The notes beneath the pieces are model-generated. The model saw only the letters and a program-made list of their open reading frames with translations. It ran no database searches and was not told the origin of the DNA. From positions 1 through 22,925 of the IMG/VR virus record IMGVR_UViG_3300027749_000489: 22,925 nucleotides of DNA; one strand, 5' to 3'. The translations under genes and the position numbers were made by a program. The stretch is from a virus. Below, one piece after another: positions 5,636-22,797 of this stretch (within the stretch, counting starts at the first letter, position 1; the number at the start of each line of letters is the position of its first letter).

Positions 5636-5643
5636 GGTAAATA
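5636..5643 (+). promoter_or_regulatory. Late-promoter-like GGTAAATA
   Basis: GGTAAATA lies 7 bases before the ATG of the collagen-like fibre gene. It resembles the T4 late promoter core TATAAATA and recurs as NNTAAATA before other virion genes in the window. With T4-like geometry the RNA would start at or just before the ATG. Confidence 0.5.
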
Positions 5644-5650
5644 TTAGACT

Positions 5651-8602
5651 ATGGCACAACTCTTATCTGGAACAAGAATATACGGAACTGGTACAGTAGA
5701 TACCCGTCTAATAATTAGTGGTAATACCAACTCTAGTTCAACTACAACGGGTGCATTAAATGTCGTTGGTGGCGTTGGTGTTGGCGGAAATATTTACTTT
5801 GATGGAAATTTATATCAAAATGGTGTTTTATTCACCGCTGGGCAAGGACCACAAGGTGTTCAAGGTGTTCAGGGTACTCAGGGTGCTCAAGGCTACCAAG
5901 GCACACAAGGTGCTCAAGGTGCTCAGGGTCGTCAAGGATTGCAAGGCGTACAGGGAGCAAATGGTAGTCAAGGTGTTCAAGGTGCAGATGGGCTTGATTC
6001 AACAGCACAAGGTGTTAAAGGCAGTCAGGGTATACAGGGAGCACAAGGTTATCAAGGTGTACAAGGTGCTCAAGGCTACCAAGGTTTACAAGGTATACAA
6101 GGCGCCACCGGCAGCCAAGGTATACAAGGTGCTCAGGGTATACAGGGACTTCAGGGATACCAAGGCACGCAAGGTGCTCAAGGATACCAAGGCGTAAAGG
6201 GAGACCCTGGATTAGATTCAACCGCACAAGGCGTTCAAGGCGTTCAAGGTACACAAGGTGCTCAAGGTACACAAGGATATCAAGGTGTTATTGGCGCCCA
6301 AGGCGTACAAGGTGCTCAAGGTGCTCAAGGCTACCAAGGTTTACAAGGTGTGCAAGGTGTACAAGGACAAGCAGGTAATATTCAAGGAGCAACCGGTTCT
6401 CAAGGTATACAAGGTAGTCAGGGTATACAGGGACTTCAAGGATACCAAGGCACGCAAGGTAGTCAGGGTATACAGGGACTTCAAGGATACCAAGGTACGC
6501 AAGGTACGCAAGGTCCTCAGGGTTTACAAGGTAGTCAAGGTATTCAGGGACTTCAGGGTTATCAAGGTACACAAGGAACTTACGGAGTAGGAGGTATTGG
6601 TTATTATGGTCTAACTGCTACTAGTTCACCACAAGCTATTACATCAACTGGTGGTCCATATACATTTACTACTAATTTATCAGCTACACAAACTGCATTT
6701 GTAATAGGTCAACGAATAAGAATTTTTGTTACTGCTAGTCCTGCCAACTTCATGGAAGGGTCAATTACCACTTTTAGTGGAACTACACTTACATTTACAC
6801 CTTCAAACAGTGGCGGTAGTGGATCATTTGCTGCATGGACCATTACCGATGCAGGTTTACAAGGTACGCAAGGTGCTCAAGGCTACCAAGGTACACAAGG
6901 TGCTCAAGGTTACCAAGGTGCTCAAGGCTACCAAGGTACACAAGGTGCTCAAGGCTACCAAGGTACACAAGGTGCTCAAGGTACACAAGGTGCTCAAGGC
7001 TACCAAGGTACACAAGGTGCTCAAGGTTATCAAGGTGTACAAGGTCCTCAAGGTATACAAGGTATTGGTTATTATGGTTTAACTGCTACTAGTGCATCGC
7101 AGGCTATTACATCAACTGGTGGTCCATATACATTTACTACTAATTTATCAGCTACACAAACTGCATTTGTAATAGGTCAACGAATAAGAATTTTTGTTAC
7201 TGCTAGTCCTGCCAACTTCATGGAAGGGTCAATTACCACTTTTAGTGGAACTACACTTACATTTACACCTTCAAACAGTGGCGGTAGTGGATCATTTGCT
7301 GCATGGACCATTACCGATGCAGGTCTTCAAGGTACGCAAGGTGCTCAAGGCTACCAAGGTACACAAGGTGCTCAAGGTTACCAAGGTGCTCAAGGCTACC
7401 AAGGTGCTCAAGGCTACCAAGGTTTACAAGGTGTTACCGGTGCTGGTACAGGTTATATTTTAACATCGGTTAGTAGTATAACTATTATTGCTTCGGGTAC
7501 TAGTGGTGCATTTACTACTTCGTTGGCAGCAACAGCAAGTGCTTTTGTAGTAGGGCAACGAGTTAGAGTATTTCAAACTGCCACGCCAACTAACTTCATG
7601 GAAGGCACCATTGCTACATTTTCTGGAAGTTCTCTAACACTTACTGTTACAAATAGCAGCGGGTCTGGTACTCTTGCCGGCTGGACATTTGTTGCCGCAG
7701 GTTTACAAGGTGTCCAAGGTACACAAGGTGCTCAAGGCTACCAAGGTACACAAGGTTACCAAGGTGCTCAAGGCTACCAAGGAATTCAAGGTGCAACTGG
7801 ACCATCAGCAGGTACTATACAACAAGTATTATTCAGTCAGGGTGTAGGCGTTGCTGCTGCTGGAGACCCTAACTTATTATGGGCATTAAATGGACTCGGT
7901 GCTATACAACGAACATTGTATATTGGCGGAACAGCAGGTACTAATGGATATGGTACATTTGCTAAATCACATAATTTTGCTACAAATAGCTCAATATTTG
8001 ATTCAACAACTGGTGATAGATTAGATTTTGCTGTACAAGGCTCATCTAGGATGTACTTGACCAGCTCTGAGTTTGCCGTCAATGCGCCCGGTGTAATACG
8101 AGTTGCAAATTTTGGCGGCAACACCGCGGCAGGACTACTGCGTTTTGGAGCCACAGGTAGTGCAACTTATTTGGCCTATGATGCTGCCAATGTCAGCGGC
8201 CTCGGCGTAGGATTTTTCTTTGCAGGTGGAGATGTAATTGTAGGAAACAGTAGAAATCTCAATGTAACTGGAGATATTGTTGCTCACTTTTCTTCTGATC
8301 AACGATTAAAAACCAACATTGAATTAATTACTGACGCTGTTAATAAAGTAGGTAAACTTGACGGGGTTACTTATAATTGGAATGAATTAGCCAACCAAAT
8401 TGATAATAACAAAAAAACTAATGTAAGAGAATCTGGCCTGATTGCTCAACAAGTAGAAGCAGTATTACCAGAAGTAGTAGCCACAAGAGAAAATGGATAT
8501 ATGGCTGTTAAATATGAAAAAGTTGTTCCATTATTAGTTGAAGCTATCAAAGAACTTACCGGTCGGGTTGAAAAACTTGAAAAACAGGTAAAATCACTAT
8601 AG
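5651..8602 (+). CDS. Collagen-like tail fibre with C-terminal peptidase S74 chaperone (983 aa)
   Basis: Domains in order: an N-terminal beta module with TTGALNVVGGVGVGGNIYF (about residues 32-50); four blocks of Gly-X-Gln triplets (about 64-308, 402-470, 558-596 and 684-718), roughly 120-130 triplets with Gln almost always third; three ~87-residue globular inserts between blocks (about 315-401, 471-557 and 597-683), the first two nearly identical; a beta-rich region (about 720-880); and a C-terminal intramolecular chaperone. The chaperone starts at FSSDQRLK, where Ser882-Asp883 and Lys887 match the Ser/Lys dyad of peptidase S74 (endosialidase type), with RESGLIAQQVEAVLPEVV following and a terminal coiled coil. 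By analogy, trimerisation would be followed by cleavage before Ser882, releasing about 102 residues. The product is most likely a trimeric, triple-helical receptor-binding fibre. The exact T4 counterpart is not assignable. Confidence 0.9.
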   Translation: MAQLLSGTRIYGTGTVDTRLIISGNTNSSSTTTGALNVVGGVGVGGNIYFDGNLYQNGVLFTAGQGPQGVQGVQGTQGAQGYQGTQGAQGAQGRQGLQGVQGANGSQGVQGADGLDSTAQGVKGSQGIQGAQGYQGVQGAQGYQGLQGIQGATGSQGIQGAQGIQGLQGYQGTQGAQGYQGVKGDPGLDSTAQGVQGVQGTQGAQGTQGYQGVIGAQGVQGAQGAQGYQGLQGVQGVQGQAGNIQGATGSQGIQGSQGIQGLQGYQGTQGSQGIQGLQGYQGTQGTQGPQGLQGSQGIQGLQGYQGTQGTYGVGGIGYYGLTATSSPQAITSTGGPYTFTTNLSATQTAFVIGQRIRIFVTASPANFMEGSITTFSGTTLTFTPSNSGGSGSFAAWTITDAGLQGTQGAQGYQGTQGAQGYQGAQGYQGTQGAQGYQGTQGAQGTQGAQGYQGTQGAQGYQGVQGPQGIQGIGYYGLTATSASQAITSTGGPYTFTTNLSATQTAFVIGQRIRIFVTASPANFMEGSITTFSGTTLTFTPSNSGGSGSFAAWTITDAGLQGTQGAQGYQGTQGAQGYQGAQGYQGAQGYQGLQGVTGAGTGYILTSVSSITIIASGTSGAFTTSLAATASAFVVGQRVRVFQTATPTNFMEGTIATFSGSSLTLTVTNSSGSGTLAGWTFVAAGLQGVQGTQGAQGYQGTQGYQGAQGYQGIQGATGPSAGTIQQVLFSQGVGVAAAGDPNLLWALNGLGAIQRTLYIGGTAGTNGYGTFAKSHNFATNSSIFDSTTGDRLDFAVQGSSRMYLTSSEFAVNAPGVIRVANFGGNTAAGLLRFGATGSATYLAYDAANVSGLGVGFFFAGGDVIVGNSRNLNVTGDIVAHFSSDQRLKTNIELITDAVNKVGKLDGVTYNWNELANQIDNNKKTNVRESGLIAQQVEAVLPEVVATRENGYMAVKYEKVVPLLVEAIKELTGRVEKLEKQVKSL
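5840..7805 (+). repeat. Collagen-like Gly-X-Gln coding repeat (four blocks)
   Basis: Nine-base periodic repeats of the type GGT-NNN-CAA fill 5840-6580, 6854-7060, 7322-7438 and 7700-7805. The middle codon varies (Ala, Tyr, Thr, Val, Leu, Ile, Ser) and Gln holds the third place where animal collagens favour Pro/Hyp. A few triplets deviate, such as the twice-occurring GLDSTAQG segment (near 5990 and 6210). Confidence 0.9.
6593..7321 (+). repeat. Near-identical 261-bp domain duplication
   Basis: The segments 6593-6853 and 7061-7321 (offset 468 bases) encode the same GIGYYGLTATS... domain. The stretch 6638-6856 is identical base for base to 7106-7324, and the similarity continues into the collagen triplets after it up to about 6935/7403. 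A third, diverged copy of the same domain is at 7439-7699 (sharing FVxGQRxRxF and NFMEG). Confidence 0.9.
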
Positions 8603-9654: not shown

Positions 9655-11499
9655 ATGAATAGAACAGATATAATAAATTACTATATTGCAAAAACTAATG
9701 CTAAATCATATTTAGAAATTGGAATTTCTGGTGGTGAAAATTTTGCCAAAATTATTTGTAATAATAAAGTTGGAGTAGATCCAAGTCCAACTTCTCCTGC
9801 AACTATACATTTAACTTCTGATGATTTCTTTATTGAAAATAAAAATTCATTTGATGTAATTTTTATTGATGGGTTACATCATGCTGATCAAGTTGAAAAA
9901 GATATCTTAAATTCTTTAAACGTACTAAATGATGGCGGTGTAATCGTATGTCATGATATGAAACCAGAAACAGAAGATGCTCAAATTATTCCATATCGAG
10001 GTGGTGAATGGAATGGTGATTGCTGGCGTGCATTTGTTAGTCTACGACAAACTCGCTCAGATTTAGAAATGTTTACCATTGACTGCGACCAGGGTGTATC
10101 GGTTATTACTCAAGGTAAACAAGATTTACTAAAAATTAATGAAGAAATGAATTATGAAAATTTTTCAAAGAATAAAAAAGAATGGCTAAATTTAATATCA
10201 GTAGATAAATTTAGCGAACTTATGAATATAAAAATGGATACTAATACACTTACACTGCTAATTAACAAATTTGTCATGGATCCAGCCGATCCTGAAAATA
10301 ATTTTGCACTGGCTATATATTACAATTACATAGGACAAACAGCATCTGCCGTATCTTATTATATTAGAACAGCAGAAAGAACAGATAATGATCTTTTAAA
10401 ATATGAATGTTTAATCAGAGCCGCTAGATGTTTTGAAGTACAAGGAACTAGAGCATTTTCTGTAAAAGGATTATTACAACATGCTATATCATTAATTCCA
10501 ACTCGCCCCGAAGCATACTATTTTTTAAGTAGAATACATGAAACATCTAAAGGCGATGGAGATATGTTTGCTTGTTATATGTTATCGTCTATTGCACTAG
10601 GTGTTTGTGATTTTAATCTCCCTGAGTTAAGAACAGATGTTGGCTACCCAGGGAGATATGGATTATTATTTGAAAAAGCTGTTAGCAGTTGGTGGTGTGG
10701 ATTGTGTGAAGAATCCAAAAATCTATTTAAAGATTTATTGAACAACGACGAGCTCGATGATACACATAGACGTGCAGTAATACAAAATCTTAAATTTTTT
10801 AATTTAACACATACTAAAGAATTAACACAATTCAATAAAGAAAAACATCAAAAATTACGAGTAAAGTTTACTGATTCGGATAAAATTGAAAAGAACTACG
10901 CCGAATCGTATCAGGATATATTTGTATTAACTATGTTGAATGGAAAAAAGAATGGTACATATTTAGAAATAGGTGCAGCAAATCCGTTCTATGGAAATAA
11001 TACAGCATTGCTGGAACAAAACTATAATTGGAAAGGTATATCTTTAGATATAGAACAACAGTTTGTTGATGCATTTTCAAAAGAAAGAAAAAATCCATGC
11101 CTGTTGAAAGATGCTACATTGATAAACTATGATAGATTTTTATCTGGGTTAGATTTTTCCACTGACATTGATTATCTCCAATTAGATTGTGATCCGCCCG
11201 ACGTTACATATAAAATATTATTGTCTATACCGTTTGAAAAATATAGATTTGCTACTATTACGTATGAGCATGATTATTACTGTGATGAGTCAAAGAGCTT
11301 TAGAGAAAAATCAAGAAAGTATTTAGAGTCATTTGGATATATTATGGTTGCTGGAGATATTGCACCAGACGAGTGGCGCAATTATGAAGATTGGTGGATT
11401 CATCCAGATTTAGTAGACAAAACAATTTTAAGTCAAATGTTGAACACAGATACAGCCACTAAAAAAGCTGAAAATTATATGTTAATGGAGAAAAAATGA
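9655..11499 (+). CDS. Methyltransferase / helical-repeat / FkbM-type methyltransferase fusion (614 aa)
   Basis: Three parts are visible. Residues 17-130 form a class I SAM-dependent methyltransferase of the Methyltransf_24 type: motif I YLEIGISGGENF (19-30), FDVIFIDGLHHADQVEKDI (66-84), then GGVIVCHDM (94-102). Residues about 200-395 are alpha-helical and TPR-like (ADPENNFALAIYYNYIGQ and similar). Residues about 433-585 form a second methyltransferase of the FkbM kind: GTYLEIGAANPF (434-445), WKGISLDIE, then DYLQLDCDPPD (506-516). FkbM-type enzymes commonly O-methylate sugars or carboxyls in glycan pathways. The gene starts 7 bases after the propeller gene and its stop overlaps the next ATG (ATGA at 11496-11499), so it belongs to the same operon and very probably the same pathway. 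Both SAM motifs look intact. Confidence 0.8.
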   Translation: MNRTDIINYYIAKTNAKSYLEIGISGGENFAKIICNNKVGVDPSPTSPATIHLTSDDFFIENKNSFDVIFIDGLHHADQVEKDILNSLNVLNDGGVIVCHDMKPETEDAQIIPYRGGEWNGDCWRAFVSLRQTRSDLEMFTIDCDQGVSVITQGKQDLLKINEEMNYENFSKNKKEWLNLISVDKFSELMNIKMDTNTLTLLINKFVMDPADPENNFALAIYYNYIGQTASAVSYYIRTAERTDNDLLKYECLIRAARCFEVQGTRAFSVKGLLQHAISLIPTRPEAYYFLSRIHETSKGDGDMFACYMLSSIALGVCDFNLPELRTDVGYPGRYGLLFEKAVSSWWCGLCEESKNLFKDLLNNDELDDTHRRAVIQNLKFFNLTHTKELTQFNKEKHQKLRVKFTDSDKIEKNYAESYQDIFVLTMLNGKKNGTYLEIGAANPFYGNNTALLEQNYNWKGISLDIEQQFVDAFSKERKNPCLLKDATLINYDRFLSGLDFSTDIDYLQLDCDPPDVTYKILLSIPFEKYRFATITYEHDYYCDESKSFREKSRKYLESFGYIMVAGDIAPDEWRNYEDWWIHPDLVDKTILSQMLNTDTATKKAENYMLMEKK

Positions 11500-12281
11500 A
11501 TAGTATACCAGTGATAGGAACTGCGGTAGTTAATAGCACACATTGGGTGTCTAGACTACTAATGAGCATAGATTACCCTGTTGATAATTTTGTTATTATC
11601 AATAACAACGGTCGTGGCGAACTTGATCGAGAGTTAGATAATCTAAAAAAGATGAATCACAAATTTGTTAAAAATATAGTTGTGTCTCATCTTCCTGCAA
11701 ATATAGGTTGCGGCGGCGCTTGGAATCTTATAATAAAATGTTTCATGCATAGCCCTTATTGGGTTCTTGTAAATGACGATGTATCATTTGGCATGGGCAT
11801 GTTAGAAGAAATGGCCACTGCTGCTAATGCAGACCCTACAGTAGGAATAATACACGGCCATGAGGGCGATTTTAATGTAGGTAGTTGGGATTTATTCTTA
11901 ATACGAGATTTTATCATACAAGAATTTGGACTGTTTGACGAAAACTTATATCCTGCATATTGCGAAGATGCTGATTATATAATGAGATTGATTCATCGAC
12001 CTATTAAAAAAATAATGTCTTTGAATAAAACATATTATCACGGCACCGGAGAATGTGGGGATTATTTAGATCATGGAAAACAAACTCAAAAAACTGAACC
12101 TGAATTAAAAGAGAAGTTAGACATTGTTAATCTTCAAAATATAGATTATCTAACTAGAAAATGGGGTAATGGCTGGAGATTGTGTGAACCAACATTTATG
12201 CCTTTTGAAAATGAAGGTAGATCCATAACTCAAACTACCTATGATTTAAATTTTGTTAGACAAAAAAATCTAGGATTTTAA
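11496..12281 (+). CDS. GT2-family (GT-A fold) glycosyltransferase
   Basis: The 261-aa protein is typical of short GT2 enzymes: N-terminal IPVIGTAVVNSTHWVSRLL; IINNNG near 35-39; ANIGCGGAWNLII (68-80); the metal/nucleotide-sugar site VNDDV (92-96); and the acceptor-side signature GLFDENLYPAYCEDADY (145-161), where the E-D region normally holds the catalytic base. It has no membrane segment, so it is a soluble cytoplasmic enzyme. The 4-base overlap with the methyltransferase gene indicates translational coupling. The donor and acceptor cannot be deduced. It may decorate a virion protein or act on host surface glycan together with its neighbours. Confidence 0.85.
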   Translation: MNSIPVIGTAVVNSTHWVSRLLMSIDYPVDNFVIINNNGRGELDRELDNLKKMNHKFVKNIVVSHLPANIGCGGAWNLIIKCFMHSPYWVLVNDDVSFGMGMLEEMATAANADPTVGIIHGHEGDFNVGSWDLFLIRDFIIQEFGLFDENLYPAYCEDADYIMRLIHRPIKKIMSLNKTYYHGTGECGDYLDHGKQTQKTEPELKEKLDIVNLQNIDYLTRKWGNGWRLCEPTFMPFENEGRSITQTTYDLNFVRQKNLGF

Positions 12282-12282
12282 A

Positions 12283-12906
12283 ATGAATAGCAAATTACTG
12301 GAAACCTCGTATCTAATACATAAGCCAGTTAATATAACTCAAACAGAAGATAAAGTTATCAGTGAATTGCTTTCAGGCCCATATTTTCCGTGGTACTGGC
12401 AGGAGAAACAAACACTCAACAATGATGAAACTGTTAAACTTGCATTGCCAGCTGAATTAAGAGAAACTATACAATTTTATAATGGTCCTTTAATGGCACA
12501 TTCTTTAATATATCGAGCTGAAAATGAAAATATAAAATATACAGAAAGACCTGACAAAGATATAAGTCCATACTGCGGATTGTTTATGGAAATATTTCAT
12601 AGATTCACAGTTGAAAATAATATAAAATATACAAATATATTTCGAGCCGCCCTAAATTTAACCTGGCATACTGGCAACTTACACACAGCTCCTCATGTAG
12701 ATCATACATGGTCACATAAAAATTTTATTATGTATTTGACAGATTGTGAAGATAGTGAAACTATAATATGGTCTTCAAATTTTTTAGAAAGTTATTATAT
12801 TCCTTGCATAAAATATACAGCGGCAGCTTTTGATCAGCAATGGCATGCCCATCGATATCCACCTCTAAAAACAAGAAGAATGGTATTGGTTGTAACTTAT
12901 ATATGA
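12283..12906 (+). CDS. 2-oxoglutarate/Fe(II)-dependent oxygenase-like protein
   Basis: The 207-aa protein has the facial triad pattern of 2OG-Fe(II) oxygenases: His138-x-Asp140 in APHVDH, a distal His188 or His190 in QQWHAHRYPP, and Arg198/Arg199 about ten residues later as the likely 2-oxoglutarate anchor, followed by a hydrophobic VLVVTYI strand. Such small oxygenases are common in T4-like aquatic phages; known members hydroxylate amino-acid side chains, nucleobases or small molecules. The gene follows the glycosyltransferase with a one-base gap (TAA-A-ATG) and ends the plus-strand operon; its stop is directly adjacent to the stop of the convergent Nudix gene. The substrate is unknown; the neighbouring collagen-like fibre is one candidate. 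Confidence 0.75.
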   Translation: MNSKLLETSYLIHKPVNITQTEDKVISELLSGPYFPWYWQEKQTLNNDETVKLALPAELRETIQFYNGPLMAHSLIYRAENENIKYTERPDKDISPYCGLFMEIFHRFTVENNIKYTNIFRAALNLTWHTGNLHTAPHVDHTWSHKNFIMYLTDCEDSETIIWSSNFLESYYIPCIKYTAAAFDQQWHAHRYPPLKTRRMVLVVTYI

Positions 12907-12922: not shown

Positions 12923-13347
12923 AATAATTCTATTTTAGCTCTAATAATTTTATTATTAAAAGAATTCTTTACTGCTCTGTGCAAAGGTTTGGGCCATTGA
13001 TCATAACTAGCCCAGGCATATCCATCGTGCTCGTTGTTTAATAGTGGAATAAATTCACGTTCGACCACTAGAACATAAGTGTTATATTGAAACCGTTGAT
13101 CGTTGCTAATAAACAATTCTAAAGGAATTACTTTTTTTATAGTGGGTGTTTTGCCCACTTCTTCATGTATTTCTCGTGTAAGAGCATCAAATGGTGTGCT
13201 ATCAGATGGTTCTTTTTTACCTCCAACTAATCCCCATGTACCTGCAGTTTTAGTCTGTGTTCTTGATAAAAGTAAAAATCGTTTGGTATCTTTGGCAAGA
13301 AACAATCCACCACTGCATATTACTTGATTTACAGAACTATTCTCCAT
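12907..13347 (-). CDS. Nudix hydrolase
   Basis: The 146-aa protein has a Nudix box at about residues 42-65: GGKKEP, then ALTREIHEEVG with the metal-binding R-E-x-x-E-E core intact. Compared with the canonical G-x5-E-x7-REUxEExGU pattern there is one extra residue in the loop and Asp in place of the first Glu. Family members hydrolyse nucleoside diphosphates linked to other groups (dNTPs, ADP-ribose, NAD, nucleotide sugars, capped RNA); the substrate cannot be chosen from sequence. Its start overlaps the end of gp15 by 19 bases on the same strand, so it is co-transcribed with gp14/gp15. T4 and relatives also carry Nudix enzymes, though not at this location. Confidence 0.85.
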   Translation of the reverse strand: MENSSVNQVICSGGLFLAKDTKRFLLLSRTQTKTAGTWGLVGGKKEPSDSTPFDALTREIHEEVGKTPTIKKVIPLELFISNDQRFQYNTYVLVVEREFIPLLNNEHDGYAWASYDQWPKPLHRAVKNSFNNKIIRAKIELLLDLL

Positions 13348-14693
13348 AATGCTGCACTATAGATGCCCTCATAACTCTTGCTCCATGCTCCGTTCTCCCA
13401 TTTGTATTGTGTATTTGTATATGAATTAGTTATATACACAACAGTCTTATAGGTTGTAGAACTGAATACTATAATCCATTTGGTGCCGTCCCATTCAATT
13501 ATATCATTGGCAAATGCTTGAAAATCACTATAGTCAGCATTCTTCCATGCTACTGGACCCGAATATCCATATTGTCCAAATTGTGCATTATTATTAATAT
13601 CTTCTAATATTAAATAGCGTGTACCTGCTGCAACCGTACCTGGATTATATGTGTCAGGATTTATAACAGCATCAACTGTTCCTCTACCCGCAATGGTAGT
13701 ATTGCTTGGAACAGTATCACGATTAATGTTTAATCTCATAGCAAAATCATCACCGGGATCTAAACTCATATAAGCAATTACTTCATTACCATCGGATTGT
13801 GCAAATCTTAATTCACTTAACCCTGCTCTAAATTTTCCAGGATATAAATCTAATATTTTTAACCAAGATGCTGTATTTTTAGGAGATGTAATATCTATAT
13901 TTTCTCCTGCACCATTGGCATTTATAAGTCTTGCGGTATTGTTTAAAACTAATAAATCAAAATTGCCTGGTGTTATAATCACTGCCGAATCTGGAGAAAT
14001 ATTTGAGAATACTTCAGCTGCTTGTGCTTGATCGTAGACTGATGCAATTGTACCCTGTGCATTGCTGGCAAAAATATTAGATATAATTTTAGTGATAACA
14101 CCTAACTTCTTCACCTTAGCAGGAGGAGTTATCCATATAGGTGTATCAAATGTCATAGTCATTATATCTATATCTTCAGTAACACCCTGTGGTATTTGCC
14201 TACTAGTAAAATTTACATCATCTAATCTAACAGTACTCAAACTAGTCCAATCTAGATAATTGTCAGTAGTTTGAATTTCAAAACTAGGAGTAAAGAAAAC
14301 TGCAATCTGTTCAAATATCTGCAACTTTTGATCTGTACTAGTAGCCCATATGTCTGCATTTAAGGTTAACTTATATGGACTTGGCATAATACGTTCAATG
14401 GTAAAATTACTGCCTTTGGTATCTAAGTATTGATTTGTAGTTGGGTCAATGGCTCTTTCAATGACATTAATCTTACTAATATACGTAGGATCTTGTAAAC
14501 GTTCTCGGTCAAATTCTAATTCTTTAATATAACAAGAAATAAATGGAGCACTTGGAATCGCATTCTCACTATTTTTTCTAAGAATTTGACCAACTTGTCT
14601 AGTCATATCTCCATAGCGAACAGGCACCTGTACTAGATTGCCCTTGGCATCCTTATAGGCAAAGTCGCTGAATATCTGAATAAATTGTGTCAA
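13329..14693 (-). CDS. gp15: Tail sheath stabiliser / tail completion protein, T4 gp15-like
   Basis: Aligning by eye with T4 gp15 gives matching blocks in order: QIFSDF...VQVPVRYGD near the N-terminus, MPSPYKLTLNADIW...QIFEQIAVFFTPSFEI in the middle, and DIDIMTMTFDTPIWITPPAKV at about residues 170-190. gp15 forms the hexameric cap at the top of the sheath and tube that joins the neck. At 454 aa it is longer than T4 gp15 (about 270); the extra C-terminal ~200 residues include W-rich beta motifs (IIEWDGTKW, YKWENGAW) also seen in gp14 and sheath here. The start given is a TTG, the only usable one in frame. However, ten more conserved residues (YFYDGQIRRY, 14723-14694) are encoded in frame just upstream, so the real N-terminus is probably farther up (see the leader entry). 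Confidence 0.85.
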   Translation of the reverse strand: MTQFIQIFSDFAYKDAKGNLVQVPVRYGDMTRQVGQILRKNSENAIPSAPFISCYIKELEFDRERLQDPTYISKINVIERAIDPTTNQYLDTKGSNFTIERIMPSPYKLTLNADIWATSTDQKLQIFEQIAVFFTPSFEIQTTDNYLDWTSLSTVRLDDVNFTSRQIPQGVTEDIDIMTMTFDTPIWITPPAKVKKLGVITKIISNIFASNAQGTIASVYDQAQAAEVFSNISPDSAVIITPGNFDLLVLNNTARLINANGAGENIDITSPKNTASWLKILDLYPGKFRAGLSELRFAQSDGNEVIAYMSLDPGDDFAMRLNINRDTVPSNTTIAGRGTVDAVINPDTYNPGTVAAGTRYLILEDINNNAQFGQYGYSGPVAWKNADYSDFQAFANDIIEWDGTKWIIVFSSTTYKTVVYITNSYTNTQYKWENGAWSKSYEGIYSAALWRIVL

Positions 14694-14791: not shown

Positions 14792-15991
14792 TTATAAATC
14801 TGCCCTTGGTTTTAATACTTGACTCAATGCCTGACGCTCTGGTACCACTTCACCTGCAATGGTAGCTGTATTGATATTGTTTATAAAACTTGCTTTGAGT
14901 TTTCTTCTTACTAGCAATGGATTATCGGTCTGTGTTTCGCCTAACATACTTGTTGTCATTCTTACATTATCCTCGTACTTGAGCCAATGTATTCCATCAA
15001 ATCTAAATAATCTATTAGGCAAATAATCTGTTCTTAGGAAGAAATCACCTAATCCTGGTGTTGTAGGAAATGATATTCCAAACCCATATGGAATACCATT
15101 TGGAGGAACACCATTACCAGTTAGATAACCAATATAATAATTTTTACCAGGGGTATTCAATATAGCAGATGAATCTAAATACGATGATGTTGCTGTGACA
15201 TCTGTATTATCGATAGTAGTATCTGCTACAGATACCAATCCTGTTCCTGTATTACTAACTGGTACAACATAGAATTGGTCAGTTTGATAACCACTCTTTT
15301 CAACATCTGATTGTGCTTGTTGAATAATCTGATTATTAATTTCTATATTTTTCTTATATGATGACAACAAATCACGTAATGTGCTGCCATCTTCTGCTCC
15401 ACTATCTGCATCGAGAATCTCTTTAAATTCTTGACTATCAACTAGTGGTGAACATTTTGCTCTGACTAAATGAGGATACCACGTTTGACTATATCCTGTT
15501 GCAGGACGAGTAACTTCTGATACAACATAAAATCTTCTCAATGCTACAAGACTATCATCTAATGCATATTCATCTTTTTGGTGTGGTAGTTCTATTACGT
15601 CACCAGCCATAATTTTTCTACCTAACGCATCATAACTGCTACGTAGGTGAAAGTTGATCATTATATTATCATTTTGTAAAAATAACCCAAATTGACTTAG
15701 ATTAAAATCCAGGTCAGCCATGGTATAAATTCCGCGAATAATGTAAACATCTGGATCATAATGACGATCTCTGTTTTCCATGAATAACAAATCTTGTATA
15801 CCTAATTCAGGAATGCTATTTAAATTGTTAGGTTGAGTAGGAGTGCTATTTCCATCTTCTGGATTAACGGGACCGAGATATTTGTGTATATAAACATCTG
15901 TGCCTCCAACCTGAAATTGCTCGTTTATAGCACGATCTAAGAATCTAAAGTCACTGCCTTTTTCTGGTTTGTATAATGATAGTCTTGGCAT
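14792..15991 (-). CDS. gp14: Neck protein, T4 gp14-like
   Basis: The 399-aa protein has the gp14 outline. FRFLDRAINEQFQVGGTDVYI is followed by GIQDLLFMENRDRHYDPDVYII, a segment with FGLFLQNDNIMINFH, and GDVIELPH...RRFYVVSEV, which corresponds to the T4 stretch with GDLIYFP and FEINWV. gp14 joins the head portal/gp13 ring to the tail. It is longer than T4 gp14 (256 aa) and has a C-terminal extension. The extension holds a GDFFLRTDYLPNRLFRFDG module (about residues 315-333), a variant of which occurs in several virion proteins here. It diverges from gp13 across 28 bases, whereas T4 has 13, 14 and 15 in one direction. A GATAAATA late-type promoter sits 7 bases before its ATG. Confidence 0.8.
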   Translation of the reverse strand: MPRLSLYKPEKGSDFRFLDRAINEQFQVGGTDVYIHKYLGPVNPEDGNSTPTQPNNLNSIPELGIQDLLFMENRDRHYDPDVYIIRGIYTMADLDFNLSQFGLFLQNDNIMINFHLRSSYDALGRKIMAGDVIELPHQKDEYALDDSLVALRRFYVVSEVTRPATGYSQTWYPHLVRAKCSPLVDSQEFKEILDADSGAEDGSTLRDLLSSYKKNIEINNQIIQQAQSDVEKSGYQTDQFYVVPVSNTGTGLVSVADTTIDNTDVTATSSYLDSSAILNTPGKNYYIGYLTGNGVPPNGIPYGFGISFPTTPGLGDFFLRTDYLPNRLFRFDGIHWLKYEDNVRMTTSMLGETQTDNPLLVRRKLKASFINNINTATIAGEVVPERQALSQVLKPRADL

Positions 15992-15998
15992 AGTATTC

Positions 15999-16006
15999 TA
16001 TTTATC
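15999..16006 (-). promoter_or_regulatory. Late-promoter-like GATAAATA for gp14/gp15/Nudix
   Basis: On the minus strand GATAAATA is followed by GAATACT and the gp14 ATG. It matches T4 TATAAATA at seven of eight bases. It abuts the plus-strand motif at 16007 without a gap. Confidence 0.6.
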
Positions 16007-16014
16007 GCTAAATA
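16007..16014 (+). promoter_or_regulatory. Late-promoter-like GCTAAATA for gp13
   Basis: GCTAAATA-TTAGT-ATG places the motif at -13 to -6 if RNA starts at the A of the gp13 ATG. This is the spacing of T4 late promoters and predicts a leaderless message. The same 5-base spacing occurs at 21624-21637. Confidence 0.6.
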
Positions 16015-16019
16015 TTAGT

Positions 16020-16778
16020 ATGACTGAGAACGAAAACGAACGCCAAAAGATAGTGCAATATGTGCAAGCCATGTTAGGCAGTGGCATGATTGATGTAGAG
16101 TTAGACCCTGTACATTACAATACTGCTATTGACCGTGCATTGGCTAAATTCCGCCAACGTAGCAGCAATGCTGTAGAAGAAAGTTTTGGATTCTTGACCT
16201 TGCAATTGGATCAAAATGAATACATAATGCCACAGGAAGTTACTAATGTTAGACAGATTTTCCGTCGCAGTATTGGTAGTAGAACAGGTGGTGGACAAGG
16301 TGGTACACTTTATGAACCATTTAACCTAGCATATTCTAACACCTATTTGCTGACAAGTACAAATATGGGCGGTTTAGCCACTTACTATGCGTTTGCTAGC
16401 TATCAGAAATTAGTGGGTAAAATGTTTGGCGGTGAGATCAACTTCACATTTAACAAAACTACTAAAAAACTCACAGTTATGCAACGTCCTAGAGCTGAAG
16501 AAGAAGTTATGCTATGGATGTATAATTACAGACCAGACTTTAATCTAATACAAGATCAGTTTGCAGGACAATGGCTTAAGGATTACAGCCTTGCAACTTG
16601 TAAAATTATGCTAGGTGAAGCACGTGAAAAGTTTGGTACAATTGCCAGCCCACAGGGTAGTACAACATTAAATGGTGCAGCGCTCAAGTCTGAGGGCAAG
16701 GCTGAGATTGAGACATTAGAACTTGATCTAATCAACTACAAAGACGGCGGTACTCCTCTTACTTTTGTAATTGGCTAA
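16020..16778 (+). CDS. gp13: Neck protein, T4 gp13-like
   Basis: The 252-aa protein resembles T4 gp13 at both ends. The N-terminal IVQYVQAMLGSGMIDVELDPVHY...AIDRALAKFRQRS parallels the T4 stretch with [26 protein letters not shown]. The C-terminal WLKDYSLATCKIMLGEAREKF, then SPQGSTTLNGAALKSEG and a terminal FVIG parallel RWVKDYATALVKELNG, LPGGVTIDG and ILVG. gp13 forms part of the neck ring sealing the head after packaging. I chose ATG 16020 (MTENENE) over an in-frame ATG at 15969: the longer form adds a hydrophobic stretch absent from the family, lies inside gp14 on the other strand and starts upstream of the promoter-like motif. Confidence 0.85.
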   Translation: MTENENERQKIVQYVQAMLGSGMIDVELDPVHYNTAIDRALAKFRQRSSNAVEESFGFLTLQLDQNEYIMPQEVTNVRQIFRRSIGSRTGGGQGGTLYEPFNLAYSNTYLLTSTNMGGLATYYAFASYQKLVGKMFGGEINFTFNKTTKKLTVMQRPRAEEEVMLWMYNYRPDFNLIQDQFAGQWLKDYSLATCKIMLGEAREKFGTIASPQGSTTLNGAALKSEGKAEIETLELDLINYKDGGTPLTFVIG

Positions 16779-17822: not shown

Positions 17823-17830
17823 GGTAAATA
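17823..17830 (+). promoter_or_regulatory. Late-promoter-like GGTAAATA for tail sheath
   Basis: GGTAAATA is followed by a 31-base leader with the ribosome binding site TAGGAGA and the sheath ATG at 17862. This leader is ordinary in length, unlike those at gp13 and gp14. Confidence 0.55.
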
Positions 17831-17861: not shown

Positions 17862-20800
17862 ATGGCAACATTGAATTCACCAGGCGTAAGCGTAACAGTA
17901 ATCGACGAAAGTTTTTATAACCCAGCGTCACCAGGCACTGTTCCTCTACTATTTGTAGCGTCTGCACAAGATAAAACAAACGCAAGCGGCACCATTGCAG
18001 CAGGTACCACAGCAGCAAATGCTGGTAAATTATGGCTCATGACAAGTCAACGTGATTTAGCTGACACCTTTGGTGTTCCGCATTTTTACACTGATGCCAG
18101 CAGCAATCCATTACATGGTGATGAATTAAACGAATACGGTCTACAAGCTGCTTACAGTGTGTTAGGAGTTAGTAGCCGCGCTTATGTTGTTAGAGCAGAT
18201 ATTGATACATCTGCATTAATTCCAAAAGAAAGTGCTCCAAGTGGAAAACCATACGGTGGCCAATATTGGGTTGACACAAATGATAGTAAATTTGGCATTA
18301 AAGAATGGCAACATAGCACATTATCATTTGTTGATAAAACTCCAATTGTATTTGATGATAATACCGATGTAGGATCTTATAAAAATAGTGATTGGAATCA
18401 AGGTCCTGATTTAACAATTGGTCAAGCAGGCGACTATTGTATAATTATTACCATGGATAATAGTTTCCGTATATGGTATAAACAGCCATCAACTACAACA
18501 TGGGTTGTGGTAAGAGATGGATACGGACCACCGGGCGCTCAAAGATCATTGATAATTGGGCCACATTATCAAGTTCCTAATTGGAATAGTAGCACAATTG
18601 ACAAGAGTGTGTGGGTTGTAACAACTAAAGAAAATAATGGTGCTAGTTGGAAAATAAAACGCTATAACAGTTCAGCACAAGGATGGGATACATTATCTAC
18701 TCCTATGTATGCAGATCTTCCAACCGCTATAGCAAAGTTAGATACAGTTGGAGGAAAAAATATTCCAGTAGGATCTGTGTTTGTTGAAGATAATTTTGAT
18801 AACTTTATTAACCCAGATGGAATTTTTAAGGTATGGAGACGTAATTCTACTGGTCCAACATCAATTACTAGCGATAGTCAAAATTATAAAACAAATCAAT
18901 GGTGGGATAATGCAACTGGACATTTAACAACTGCAACTTTTAAAATTAGATATACAGTACCAGGAAGTACAGCATGGAGCGCATTAACCACTATTAATAT
19001 TACACCCGCTAGTTATGGTTCTAATTCCGGAACAAGTATTGCATCTTTAATTCCAGCAGCAATAGCAGGTGCAGGATTACCTAATATTTCATCTACATAT
19101 AATGCTCTTACTGATCAAATAACGATTACACATTTACAAGGTGGAGATTTTGAATTAGTAGAGGTAACAAATAACCCAATTACTCTTGCAGGTATTGGTT
19201 ATACTACTGCTAATGTAATTGTTCCTCCAACTTATGATTATGCTACATACTTGGCAACAGGCTGGGCATCCTTGGACTTCCAGGCCAGTGCAGATGCACC
19301 TTACAATGTTCCAGCAGATGGCACATTGTGGTATGATTCTGTACATGATCAAGTAGATATTTTATATCACAATGGTACAACTTGGGTCGGCTATCACAAT
19401 GCTTTCCCAAATACAGATCCAAATGGCCCAATTGTATCAGCCACTGAACCATTATCAGCAAACGGTCAGAGCGATAGTACACCATTGGTTAATGGTGATA
19501 TTTGGATTTCTACCGCAGATATAGAAATGTATGGTAAAAACATCTATGTTTATAGTACCACTGCAGGTTGGGTAGCACAAGACACCACTGATCAATCAAC
19601 AAGCAACGGTTGGTTATTTGCTGATGTACGTTGGGCAACCACAGGAACATCATTGACTGCTAGCAATATCTATTCATTGATTAGAAGCGATTATTTAGAT
19701 CCAGATACTCCAGATCCTGCTATCTATCCAAGAGGTATGCGTCTGTGGAATACTCGTCGTAGTGGATTTAATGTTAAGAAATATATTTCTGGACATATTG
19801 ATATATATGCAAATAATGGACTTAATGCTCGTTATCCACATAACGCTGGTGAATCAATGGACACATCAGGACACGAATATGCAGCAGATCGTTGGGTAAG
19901 TCAACACAATGTTGCAGCCGATGGATCTGGTGTGTTCGGACGTCATGCACAAAGAGCACAACTAGTACAAGCATTCAAATCAACTATAGATACTAATGCA
20001 ATTATTAGAGACACTGATACTGTTAATTTCAACTTAATGGCTACTCCTGGATATTCAGAAGTTATTCAAAACATGGTTGCACTTAACATCGATCGTGGTC
20101 AAACTGCATTTATAGTTGGAGATACTCCGTTCCGCTTGATGCCAACTGGAACAGAGTTAAGCAACTGGGGATTGAATACTGCTCAAGCATTAGATAACGG
20201 AGATGAAGGTGCAGTTACATATGATGAATATCTAGCATTGTATTATCCAAGTGGTTATACTAACGACAATACAGGCAACTATATTGTTGTTCCACCAAGT
20301 CACATGATGCTACGTACAATTATCAACAGTGATGCCAAGAGCTTCCAATGGTTTGCACCTGCAGGAACACGACGCGGTGGTGTTGACAATGCTACATCAG
20401 TTGGTTATATTACCAGCGAAGGCGAATTTAAATCTACTCCACTATCACAAGGAATACGCGATGTAATGTTAAGTCCAAGTACTAAAGTTGCAATTAACCC
20501 AATTGCGACATTAGCCGGAGTAGGAATTGTAGCCTACGGTCAACGTACTCGTGCAAAGAATGCTAGCTCATTAGATAGAATTAATGTTGCTCGTTTAGTT
20601 TGCTATCTACGTAGACAATTAGATGTTCTTGCAAGACCATTCTTGTTTGAACCTAATGATGCACAAACACGTCGCGAAATCAAAGCCGCAGCAGAAAGTC
20701 TAATGCTAGAGTTGGTAGGCCAACGTGCATTGTATGACTACGTTGTGGTCTGCGATGAAACTAACAATACCGCTGCGAGAATTGATCGCAATGAGTTATA

Positions 20801-20896: not shown

Positions 20897-20904
20897 GGTA
20901 AATA
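20897..20904 (+). promoter_or_regulatory. Late-promoter-like GGTAAATA for tail tube
   Basis: GGTAAATA starts two bases after the sheath stop. AAGGAG at 20914-20919 then gives a strong ribosome binding site before the ATG at 20927. A separate promoter fits the high demand for tube subunits. Confidence 0.55.
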
Positions 20905-21574: not shown

Positions 21575-21595
21575 TAACCATTAACTATAAAGTCA

Positions 21596-21618
21596 AACCT
21601 GGATTTATCCGGGTTTTT
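21596..21618 (+). terminator. Rho-independent terminator after tail tube
   Basis: AACCTGG (21596-21602) pairs with CCGGGTT (21609-21615) with one G-U pair around ATTTAT, followed by a run of T (21614-21618). GTCAAA (21592-21597) and TTTGAC (21620-21625) could extend pairing outward. It lies 21 bases after the gp19 stop. Confidence 0.8.
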
Positions 21619-21623
21619 CTTTG

Positions 21624-21631
21624 ACTAAATA
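21624..21631 (+). promoter_or_regulatory. Late-promoter-like ACTAAATA for the 386-aa gene
   Basis: ACTAAATA-TTAAT-ATG has exactly the motif-to-ATG spacing seen at gp13 and lies directly behind the terminator. Only a leaderless or near-leaderless transcript is possible from this site. Confidence 0.55.
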
Positions 21632-21636
21632 TTAAT

Positions 21637-22797
21637 ATGACTTCACAACATTTTCAAAATTTTGTAACCAACGGAACTGGCCAAACAGTTATGAAAGACT
21701 TTCAACATGCAAATAGATTGTATATTAACAATGGCTTTGCAAGAGCACCTAAAGTTGGATTTTTATATTTTGTAAGATTTAATCTTAATAAAGATGCAAT
21801 ACCAGATAAAACATGGAATGAGAAAAATATTAATGTTGTAGGATTGCTGGCTAAAAAAGTAGACCTTCCTAAATTCACAATTGCTACAGAAACATTGAAT
21901 CAATATAATAGAAAAACTATAGTACAAAAAAGTATAAGTTATAATCCTATTAATATAGATCTACACGACGATAATACAGATATTACTCATTCACTTTGGG
22001 AAAATTATTACAAACATTATTATGTTGACGGACTTCAATCTGATGCTGCATATGGTAATACAAAATACGAAGAAAAAGATTACAATTACGGTAGATATGA
22101 TTCTTTACATAATCAGGGTGGCCGATCAGATACAAAACCAGTATCAGAAAATTTCTTTAGGTCAATTGACATTTATGTATTACATCAAAAGAATTTTACC
22201 AAATACACACTAGTTAATCCTAAAATTAAAGATTGGAAACATGATTCCGTGGATCAATCATCAGGTAATAAAGTATTACAAAATAGTATGACTGTTGAAT
22301 ACGAAAGTGTATTTTATAAAAAAGGAAAACTAAAAAAAGGTAGTGATGATTATATGATTGAGGAATATCTTGATCAAACACCAAGTCCACACACCATCGG
22401 TAATGACGGAGACGAATATCGCAGAAGTCCTTCTACATTTGATGACCAATTAGCAACACAGACTTTTGGAGTAAAAAATAGACCAGGCGAAGGCGATTTA
22501 TTGTCTCAACTTGGAACCACTGTGCTTAGAAATTATATAAATCAAAACGGACTTACTAGGCAAACAGCCACAGCATATAATATTGCAGGTAGTGCTTTAA
22601 CTGCTGCACTAAGTTCAGGACCAGGCAAATACGGTGCTGCTGGTCCTGCAAATGATTATGCTGAAACGCCTGGAAATCAGCCTGGAGTTTTTAACTTGTT
22701 TGGCGGAGTTAAAATTGATTTATTTAAAGGACTCAATGTCAGCGTTGACGGCATTACTAGAGCTAATCCAGCATCGTTGTTATTTCCTAAAGGTTAA
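21637..22797 (+). CDS. Tail tube/tube-initiator-like structural protein (386 aa)
   Basis: Residues about 40-245 have the flavour of phage tail-tube-fold proteins: KVGFLYFVRFNL, a KKVDLPKF then YNRKTIVQKSISYNPINI stretch, SLWENYYKHYYVDG, and WKHDSVDQSS...LQNSMTVEYESVFYKKG. Position directly after the tube gene also fits a paralogue or a gp48/gp54-like tube initiator or baseplate component, but I cannot align it confidently with either. The C-terminal 100 residues are Gly/Ala/Asn-rich with SGPGKYGAAGPANDY and end in NPASLLFPKG. No Shine-Dalgarno is visible. The next gene follows after 2 bases, so it is co-translated. Structural role likely, exact part unknown. Confidence 0.65.
   Translation: MTSQHFQNFVTNGTGQTVMKDFQHANRLYINNGFARAPKVGFLYFVRFNLNKDAIPDKTWNEKNINVVGLLAKKVDLPKFTIATETLNQYNRKTIVQKSISYNPINIDLHDDNTDITHSLWENYYKHYYVDGLQSDAAYGNTKYEEKDYNYGRYDSLHNQGGRSDTKPVSENFFRSIDIYVLHQKNFTKYTLVNPKIKDWKHDSVDQSSGNKVLQNSMTVEYESVFYKKGKLKKGSDDYMIEEYLDQTPSPHTIGNDGDEYRRSPSTFDDQLATQTFGVKNRPGEGDLLSQLGTTVLRNYINQNGLTRQTATAYNIAGSALTAALSSGPGKYGAAGPANDYAETPGNQPGVFNLFGGVKIDLFKGLNVSVDGITRANPASLLFPKG

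What the first reader, a model, noticed from the sequence alone, without database searches (positions are those of the whole stretch)
15992..16019. Back-to-back abutting late promoters drive gp14 and gp13 with no room for leaders
The 28-base gap holds GATAAATA (minus, 15999-16006) touching GCTAAATA (plus, 16007-16014). Each lies 5-7 bases from its start codon. With T4 late geometry RNA would begin at or within a couple of bases of each ATG, so both messages would be leaderless or nearly so, and two polymerases could not load at once. This couples gp13 and gp14 expression in an unusual way.
Basis: partly seen in the sequence, partly recalled or inferred. Interest (0 to 1): 0.6.

Follow-up and report, generated by a model that had tools for sequence, protein, structure and literature searches.

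The report
Leaderless late promoters in giant phages
In a group of uncultivated giant phages, the switch that turns on many late (mostly virion-building) genes sits so close to the gene that the message should begin at, or two to three letters before, its start codon, a layout that the related phages checked (T4, RaK2, PA5oct and others) lack but that at least one cultured SAR11 phage seems to have evolved separately.

Summary
The 28-base gap 15992-16019 holds GATAAATA (minus) touching GCTAAATA (plus), 7 and 5 bases from the two ATGs. In 50 distinct versions of this gap from IMG/VR relatives, the plus-side distance is 5 in 50/50 and the minus-side distance 7 in 46/50, although the gap varies from 27 to 67 bases. 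So motif-to-ATG distance is held, not motif-to-motif distance.

The pair is one case of a wider class. In 1.14 Mb of relatives, 83 ATGs have TAAATA exactly 5 bases upstream (shuffles: 2.9) and 158 have it 4-8 upstream (shuffles: 13.9), with a trough at 9-16 and a second, SD-bearing group at 17-35. T4, RaK2, PA5oct, Atu_ph07 and S-PM2 have 0-3 each. A gp55-type late sigma factor is present. By T4 geometry these transcripts start at, or 2-3 bases before, the AUG.

The cultured SAR11 phage HTVC008M shows the same class and a compact divergent pair at gene 2/gene 4; a TerL tree puts the two lineages apart.

Special gp13-gp14 coupling is not supported: the boxes separate in relatives and occur singly elsewhere. 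The plus gene is gp13; the minus gene is not detectably gp14. No transcription start has been measured.

The parts
15992..16019 (.). 28-base intergenic gap holding both late-promoter boxes; no room for a ribosome-binding leader on either side
   Evidence: 50 distinct homologous gaps in relatives
15999..16006 (-). late-promoter box GATAAATA of the minus gene; 7 bases to ATG; predicted start at the conserved A 15994 (3-nt leader ACU) or 15993
   Evidence: TAAATA-N4-ACT-ATG in most relatives; A at the 5th base after the box in 88% of the d=7 class
16007..16014 (+). late-promoter box GCTAAATA of the plus gene; 5 bases to ATG; predicted start = A of the ATG (16020)
   Evidence: d=5 in 50/50 distinct gaps; CTAAATA is the published Aeh1 variant starting at -12 (PMC1524935)
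16020..16778 (+). gp13 homolog (head-tail adaptor Ad2), predicted leaderless message
   Evidence: phrog_211 E 2e-33; hhalign to T4/S-PM2 gp13 99.2%; several of codons 2-14 vary only or mainly synonymously
   Evidence: codons 2-14 vary mostly synonymously, MP[RK]LS start conserved; start shared with Atu_ph07
21625..21631 (+). single leaderless-type box CTAAATA, 5 bases before the ATG of a tail-tube-like gene (21637-22797), just after an intrinsic-terminator-like hairpin (21595-21616)
   Evidence: its apparent family has the box at d4-8 in 14/14 relatives
5637..5643 (+). box GTAAATA, 7 bases before the ATG of the tail-fibre gene 5651-8602 (near-leaderless)
20899..20904 (+). leadered contrast: TAAATA 22 bases before the tail-tube gene 20927 with AAGGAG in the leader
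17825..17830 (+). leadered contrast: TAAATA 31 bases before the tail-sheath gene 17862 with AGGAGA in the leader

Best explanation
The two motifs are gp55-type (T4-like) late promoters placed so that transcription starts on the A of the gp13-homolog AUG and 2-3 bases before the AUG of the divergent virion-protein gene. Both messages would then be translated by leaderless initiation (a ribosome binding the 5'-terminal AUG) rather than through a Shine-Dalgarno (SD) leader. They belong to a clade-wide class of leaderless late promoters that coexists with ordinary late promoters having an SD leader; the back-to-back layout is what two such promoters look like in a very short divergent gap. Shown: the motifs, their fixed distance to the AUG across relatives, gene starts supported by synonymous codon variation, a late sigma factor homolog in relatives, and near absence of the class from the cultured relatives tested. 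Inferred: that gp55-RNA polymerase uses the boxes, that starts fall at or 2-3 bases before the AUG, and that the messages are translated leaderless.
For: T4 late boxes lie at -13 to -6 from the start (PMC1524935; review PMC2988020), so TAAATA-N5-ATG puts +1 on the A of ATG. In 14 IMG/VR relatives TAAATA-to-ATG distance is bimodal: 83 at d=5, 158 ATGs at d=4-8, trough at 9-16, 120 ATGs at 17-35; shuffles 2.9 and 13.9. SD present in 4/158 of the close class and 82/120 of the far class. Per-pair conservation 50/50 and 46/50. Nine gene families in at least 5 genomes have the close box in every member; annotated close-box families include the gp13 homolog, terminase large subunit, portal and a baseplate wedge subunit. 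GTG and TTG show no d=5 peak (1 each). Late sigma homolog in G001: phrog_12791 E 2.9e-82, phrog_234 E 4e-26. T4 0, PA5oct 3, Atu_ph07 2, RaK2 1, S-PM2 0 ATGs in the close class. In L080 an HNH ORF occupies the box-ATG position and the displaced virion gene has an SD and a putative ATT start; in L069 the gene lies ~21 bases from the box with an SD.
Against: No transcript 5' end has been measured for any member. gp45 was not found by Pfam PF09116 or T4 gp45 in this clade, but the same searches also failed in RaK2, PA5oct and Atu_ph07; gp33 was not searched. Lack of SD in the close class is partly forced, because the box occupies the SD position. GTG/TTG starts are also few in the far class, so the AUG-only result is weak support. 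The window itself is a 22.9 kb fragment without a sigma gene; that comes from relatives. The host is unknown, so its ability to translate leaderless messages is unknown.
Confidence: 0.8

Rival explanations
1. The boxes are ordinary host sigma-70 -10 elements (TA-like boxes as in bacterial leaderless genes) used by the host polymerase, not gp55 late promoters. Transcripts would still be leaderless but not late-specific.
For: Bacterial leaderless genes carry a TANNNT box about 12 bases upstream of the start (PMC3160421); 15 other genes of this clade do have a sigma-70-like -35/-10 pair whose -10 ends 5-6 bases before ATG, none with an SD.
Against: The hexamer is TAAATA, not TANNNT; the same box occurs at longer distance with SD leaders as in T4 relatives; a late sigma factor is encoded; the annotated genes of the class are mostly virion/packaging genes.
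Confidence: 0.1
2. TAAATA next to the AUG is an AU-rich translation signal inside a longer message; the promoters lie elsewhere.
For: Position relative to AUG is fixed, as for a translation signal.
Against: The same hexamer also occurs 17-35 bases upstream together with an SD, as a promoter would; it matches the published T4/Aeh1 late box; on the minus side only 28 bases separate the gene from its divergent neighbour; T-tracts precede it in 30/83 d=5 cases against 11/102 of the far class.
Confidence: 0.07
3. The abutting pair is a dedicated regulatory device: polymerases exclude one another and so fix the ratio of the two proteins. This could be true in addition to the best explanation.
For: Predicted starts lie ~26 bp apart, less than one polymerase footprint (general knowledge); 42 of 50 gaps are 27-29 bases; a similar pair (YqgE/AlgH-like gene and a phrog_36119 gene) recurs in 7 of 14 contigs.
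Against: Box-to-box distance is not conserved (3-5, 15-16, 25, 38, 40 bases); a homing endonuclease interrupts the pair in some relatives; compactness alone explains it.
Confidence: 0.12
4. Chance AT-rich matches or wrong start codons.
For: Single boxes are about as frequent as in shuffles within the window.
Against: Positional peak 83 against 2.9; 50/50 conservation; the first codons of both genes vary mostly synonymously; the TAA of TAAATA ends an upstream open frame in only 13/162 cases.
Confidence: 0.02

Closest known systems
T4 late promoters (gp55/gp33/gp45-dependent; Geiduschek and Kassavetis 2010, PMC2988020; TATAAATA at -13 to -6, PMC1524935)
   Same: Box sequence, including variants at the first positions; late sigma factor homolog present
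   Different: In T4 no TAAATA lies 4-8 bases before an ATG; its boxes lie mostly 22-29 bases upstream. Here a large class sits 4-8 bases upstream
Bacterial leaderless ('TA-led') genes, e.g. Deinococcus and Actinobacteria (PMC3160421, PMC12340547)
   Same: -10-like box directly before the ATG, no SD, coexisting with SD-led genes
   Different: Box is the phage late box TAAATA rather than TANNNT; it serves phage late genes
Jumbo phages RaK2, PA5oct, CBB, Atu_ph07 and Phosso
   Same: Homologous gp13 and minus-strand virion protein; divergent gene order shared with Atu_ph07 and Phosso; ATAAATA late motif reported in CBB (PMC5259590)
   Different: 1-3 close-class ATGs in the three scanned (RaK2, PA5oct, Atu_ph07); no clear d=5 excess in CBB or Phosso by pattern counts
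Pelagibacter phage HTVC008M (cultured, SAR11)
   Same: d=5 peak (11), 15 close-class ATGs, and a compact divergent pair with d=5 on both sides at gene 2/gene 4, mostly kept in its near IMG/VR relatives
   Different: Sister to S-PM2 in the TerL tree, far from this clade: probably a parallel origin

Membership tests
T4-type late promoter | TATAAATA-like box at -13 to -6 of a mapped start | tested here: inconclusive
   Box present and conserved; starts not mapped
T4-type late promoter | gp55-family sigma factor in the phage | tested here: met
   In relatives G001, G004, G005 by T4 gp55; G001 protein phrog_12791 E 2.9e-82; the window fragment itself does not cover it
T4-type late promoter | gp45 sliding clamp as activator | tested here: inconclusive
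   No match with T4 gp45 or PF09116, nor in RaK2/PA5oct/Atu_ph07
T4-type late promoter | gp33 co-activator | not tested
   not searched; CBB is reported to lack detectable gp33 and gp45 (PMC5259590)
Leaderless gene class | promoter box about 10-12 bases before ATG with positional peak above shuffles | tested here: met
   definition from PMC3160421
Leaderless gene class | no Shine-Dalgarno | tested here: met
   4/158 with SD; partly forced by the box position
Leaderless gene class | 5' end at the AUG and translation without leader | not testable with these tools
   needs 5'-end mapping and ribosome profiling
T4 gp13 (plus gene) | sequence homology to head-tail adaptor Ad2 | tested here: met
   phrog_211; hhalign 99.2%
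T4 gp14 (minus gene) | sequence homology to head closure Hc2 | tested here: not met
   hhalign 0.3% against T4 + S-PM2 gp14; phrog_11591 virion structural

The most novel reading that the evidence does not exclude
At least two separate T4-related lineages (this uncultivated jumbo-phage clade and SAR11 phage HTVC008M) have converted many late genes to leaderless mRNAs by fixing the gp55 late box 4-8 bases before the AUG, possibly exploiting hosts with efficient leaderless (70S) initiation or escaping SD-based control.
Probability: 0.6. Interest if true: 0.72.

Novelty: new variant of a known kind. Interest (0 to 1): 0.6.

Why it matters
T4 late transcription is a textbook system, and most of its late boxes lie far enough from the start codon for an SD leader. 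A large, conserved class of late genes with no leader would mean a phage routes much of its virion synthesis through leaderless initiation, and it may explain why published late-promoter searches failed in pelagimyophages (PMC7029224). It is directly testable in a cultured phage (HTVC008M). It also gives an annotation aid: a TAAATA 4-8 bases upstream marks the likely true start codon in these phages.

Tried and rejected
Judging the boxes by count alone: uninformative. Stop-codon overlap (TAA of the upstream gene) as cause of the peak: only 13/162. Minus gene as gp14: no profile match. Host identification: genome-contig scans with a YqgE/AlgH-like protein and with gp13 found no relative. gp45 by Pfam PF09116 or T4 protein: nothing in the clade or in RaK2/PA5oct/Atu_ph07. 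The d=7 pattern by raw counts is not clearly enriched genome-wide; its signal rests on gene starts. Literature searches for leaderless T4-type late messages found none in the open library, which does not exclude subscription papers.

Full report
What is there. Between the minus ORF 14792-15991 and the plus ORF 16020-16778 lie 28 bases, AGTATTCTATTTATCGCTAAATATTAGT. GATAAATA (minus, 15999-16006) touches GCTAAATA (plus, 16007-16014). TAAATA ends 7 and 5 bases before the two ATGs. The plus gene is a gp13 homolog (phrog_211; hhalign 99.2%, E 2.7e-19 against T4/S-PM2 gp13). The minus gene is phrog_11591, virion structural protein; it shows no detectable relation to gp14. The next structural gene on the minus strand, 13329-14693, is the gp15-type tail sheath stabiliser (PF16724). 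Closest annotated relatives are jumbo phages: Atu_ph07, Phosso, PA5oct, RaK2 and SCTP-2. Atu_ph07 and Phosso share the divergent order with larger gaps.

Is it more than chance? Single boxes are not rare in this AT-rich DNA. Conservation is the test. From two IMG/VR searches I collected 50 distinct versions of the gap over 142 locus entries; the two searches overlap, so entries are not independent. The plus side is 5 in 50/50; the minus side is 7 in 46, 5 in 2, 6 in 1, none in 1. Gap length runs from 27 to 67 and box-to-box distance from 3 to 40 bases. So each box is tied to its own ATG. The first codons of both genes vary mostly at synonymous sites, which supports the starts.

A class, not a curiosity. 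I read 14 larger IMG/VR relatives (1.14 Mb) with a simple ORF caller and measured TAAATA-to-ATG distances. There is a sharp peak at 5 (83), flanks at 4 (19) and 7 (36), a trough at 9-16, and a broad group at 17-35. Dinucleotide shuffles give 2.9 at d=5 and 13.9 ATGs at d=4-8 against 158 observed. SD-like tetramers occur in 4/158 of the close class and 82/120 of the far class; part of this is forced, since the box fills the SD position. GTG and TTG show no d=5 peak. In the d=5 class T precedes ATG in 89%; in the d=7 class the run-in is A-[CT]-T-ATG with A at the fifth base after the box in 88%, which fits a purine start at the fifth or sixth base. 47 families have a close-class member, nine of them in at least 5 genomes with every member in the class. 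For genes with several in-frame ATGs I preferred the one with the box, which favours this count. Annotated examples are terminase large subunit, portal, baseplate wedge, gp13 and other virion proteins.

Controls. T4 has 0, S-PM2 0, RaK2 (1-340 kb) 1, Atu_ph07 (1-220 kb) 2 and PA5oct (1-220 kb) 3 ATGs in the close class, while their 17-35 group is similar to the clade's. Pattern counts in these and 12 further T4-related phages singled out HTVC008M (14 against 4 control hits). There the d=5 peak holds 11, and at 18914-18945 two boxes four bases apart with d=5 on both sides precede gene 2 (DNA end protector) and gene 4 (head closure), agreeing with the GenBank starts. Its near IMG/VR relatives mostly keep d=5-6 before gene 4. 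A TerL tree needs two changes to place the trait; long branches are present and only one pelagiphage was included, so parallel origin is likely, not proven.

Machinery. T4 gp55 finds a homolog in G001, G004 and G005; the G001 protein matches phrog_12791 'sigma factor for late transcription' at 2.9e-82 and phrog_234 at 4e-26. gp45 was not detected, nor was it in RaK2, PA5oct or Atu_ph07 with the same tools; CBB is reported to have a gp55 but no detectable gp33 or gp45 (PMC5259590). T4 geometry (box -13 to -6: PMC1524935) puts +1 at the A of ATG for d=5. Bacterial leaderless genes are recognised by the same logic (PMC3160421; PMC12340547).

Natural test. In L080 an HNH-type ORF sits where the minus gene would begin and takes over its box and ATG (d=7); the displaced gene has AAAGGAG and a putative ATT start overlapping the HNH stop. 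L069 lacks the HNH but keeps the SD and ATT, with the box about 21 bases away. When the box is moved from the start, an SD appears. These are two cases, read from sequence only; HNH identity rests on the sequence and position, not on a family search.

Early promoters. 15 genes have a sigma-70-like promoter whose -10 ends 5-6 bases before ATG, none with an SD; most sigma-70-like sites lie 20-33 bases upstream. Controls have 0-2. So leaderless geometry may not be confined to late boxes.

Compact pairs. Box-ATG divergent pairs in the 14 contigs recur at gp13/virion protein and at a YqgE/AlgH-like gene with a phrog_36119 gene (seven contigs), with single other cases; none in the T4, PA5oct, Atu_ph07, RaK2 or S-PM2 segments, one in HTVC008M. 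I read the compact pair as two leaderless promoters in a short gap. Polymerase exclusion is likely (inference) but no evidence ties it to regulation.

Limits. No 5' ends are measured. Gene calling was simple and counts include internal ATGs. Contigs are fragments and partly redundant. The host is unknown.

Noticed in passing
L080:2274-3013 and L069:2960-3005: HNH-type homing-endonuclease ORF placed exactly at the start of the minus virion gene, using its late box and ATG; the displaced gene has an SD and a putative ATT start. L069 carries what looks like the scar without the endonuclease. G012 (48390) has a similar arrangement.
   Followed up: partly
G002 (L177), contig positions 23526-25107: Terminase large subunit is split into two ORFs by an insert whose 228-aa ORF (24512) has its own close-class box; possible intron with endonuclease, not identified.
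   Followed up: no
L164:5650-18512 (G001): Cluster of 41 predicted tRNA genes.
   Followed up: no
G001:207543-207577 and equivalents in six other contigs: Second conserved compact divergent pair, between a YqgE/AlgH-like gene and a phrog_36119 gene.
   Followed up: partly
G001-G012 (one search list): Sigma-70-like promoters with the -10 box 5-6 bases before ATG and no SD: possible leaderless early genes.
   Followed up: partly
window 21595-21631: Terminator-like hairpin runs straight into the late box of the next gene; T-tracts precede 30/83 d=5 boxes against 11/102 of the far class.
   Followed up: partly
window 9655-12906: Cassette of a DNA methyltransferase-like protein, a galactosyltransferase-like protein and an endonuclease V-like protein between tail-fibre and neck genes.
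   Followed up: no
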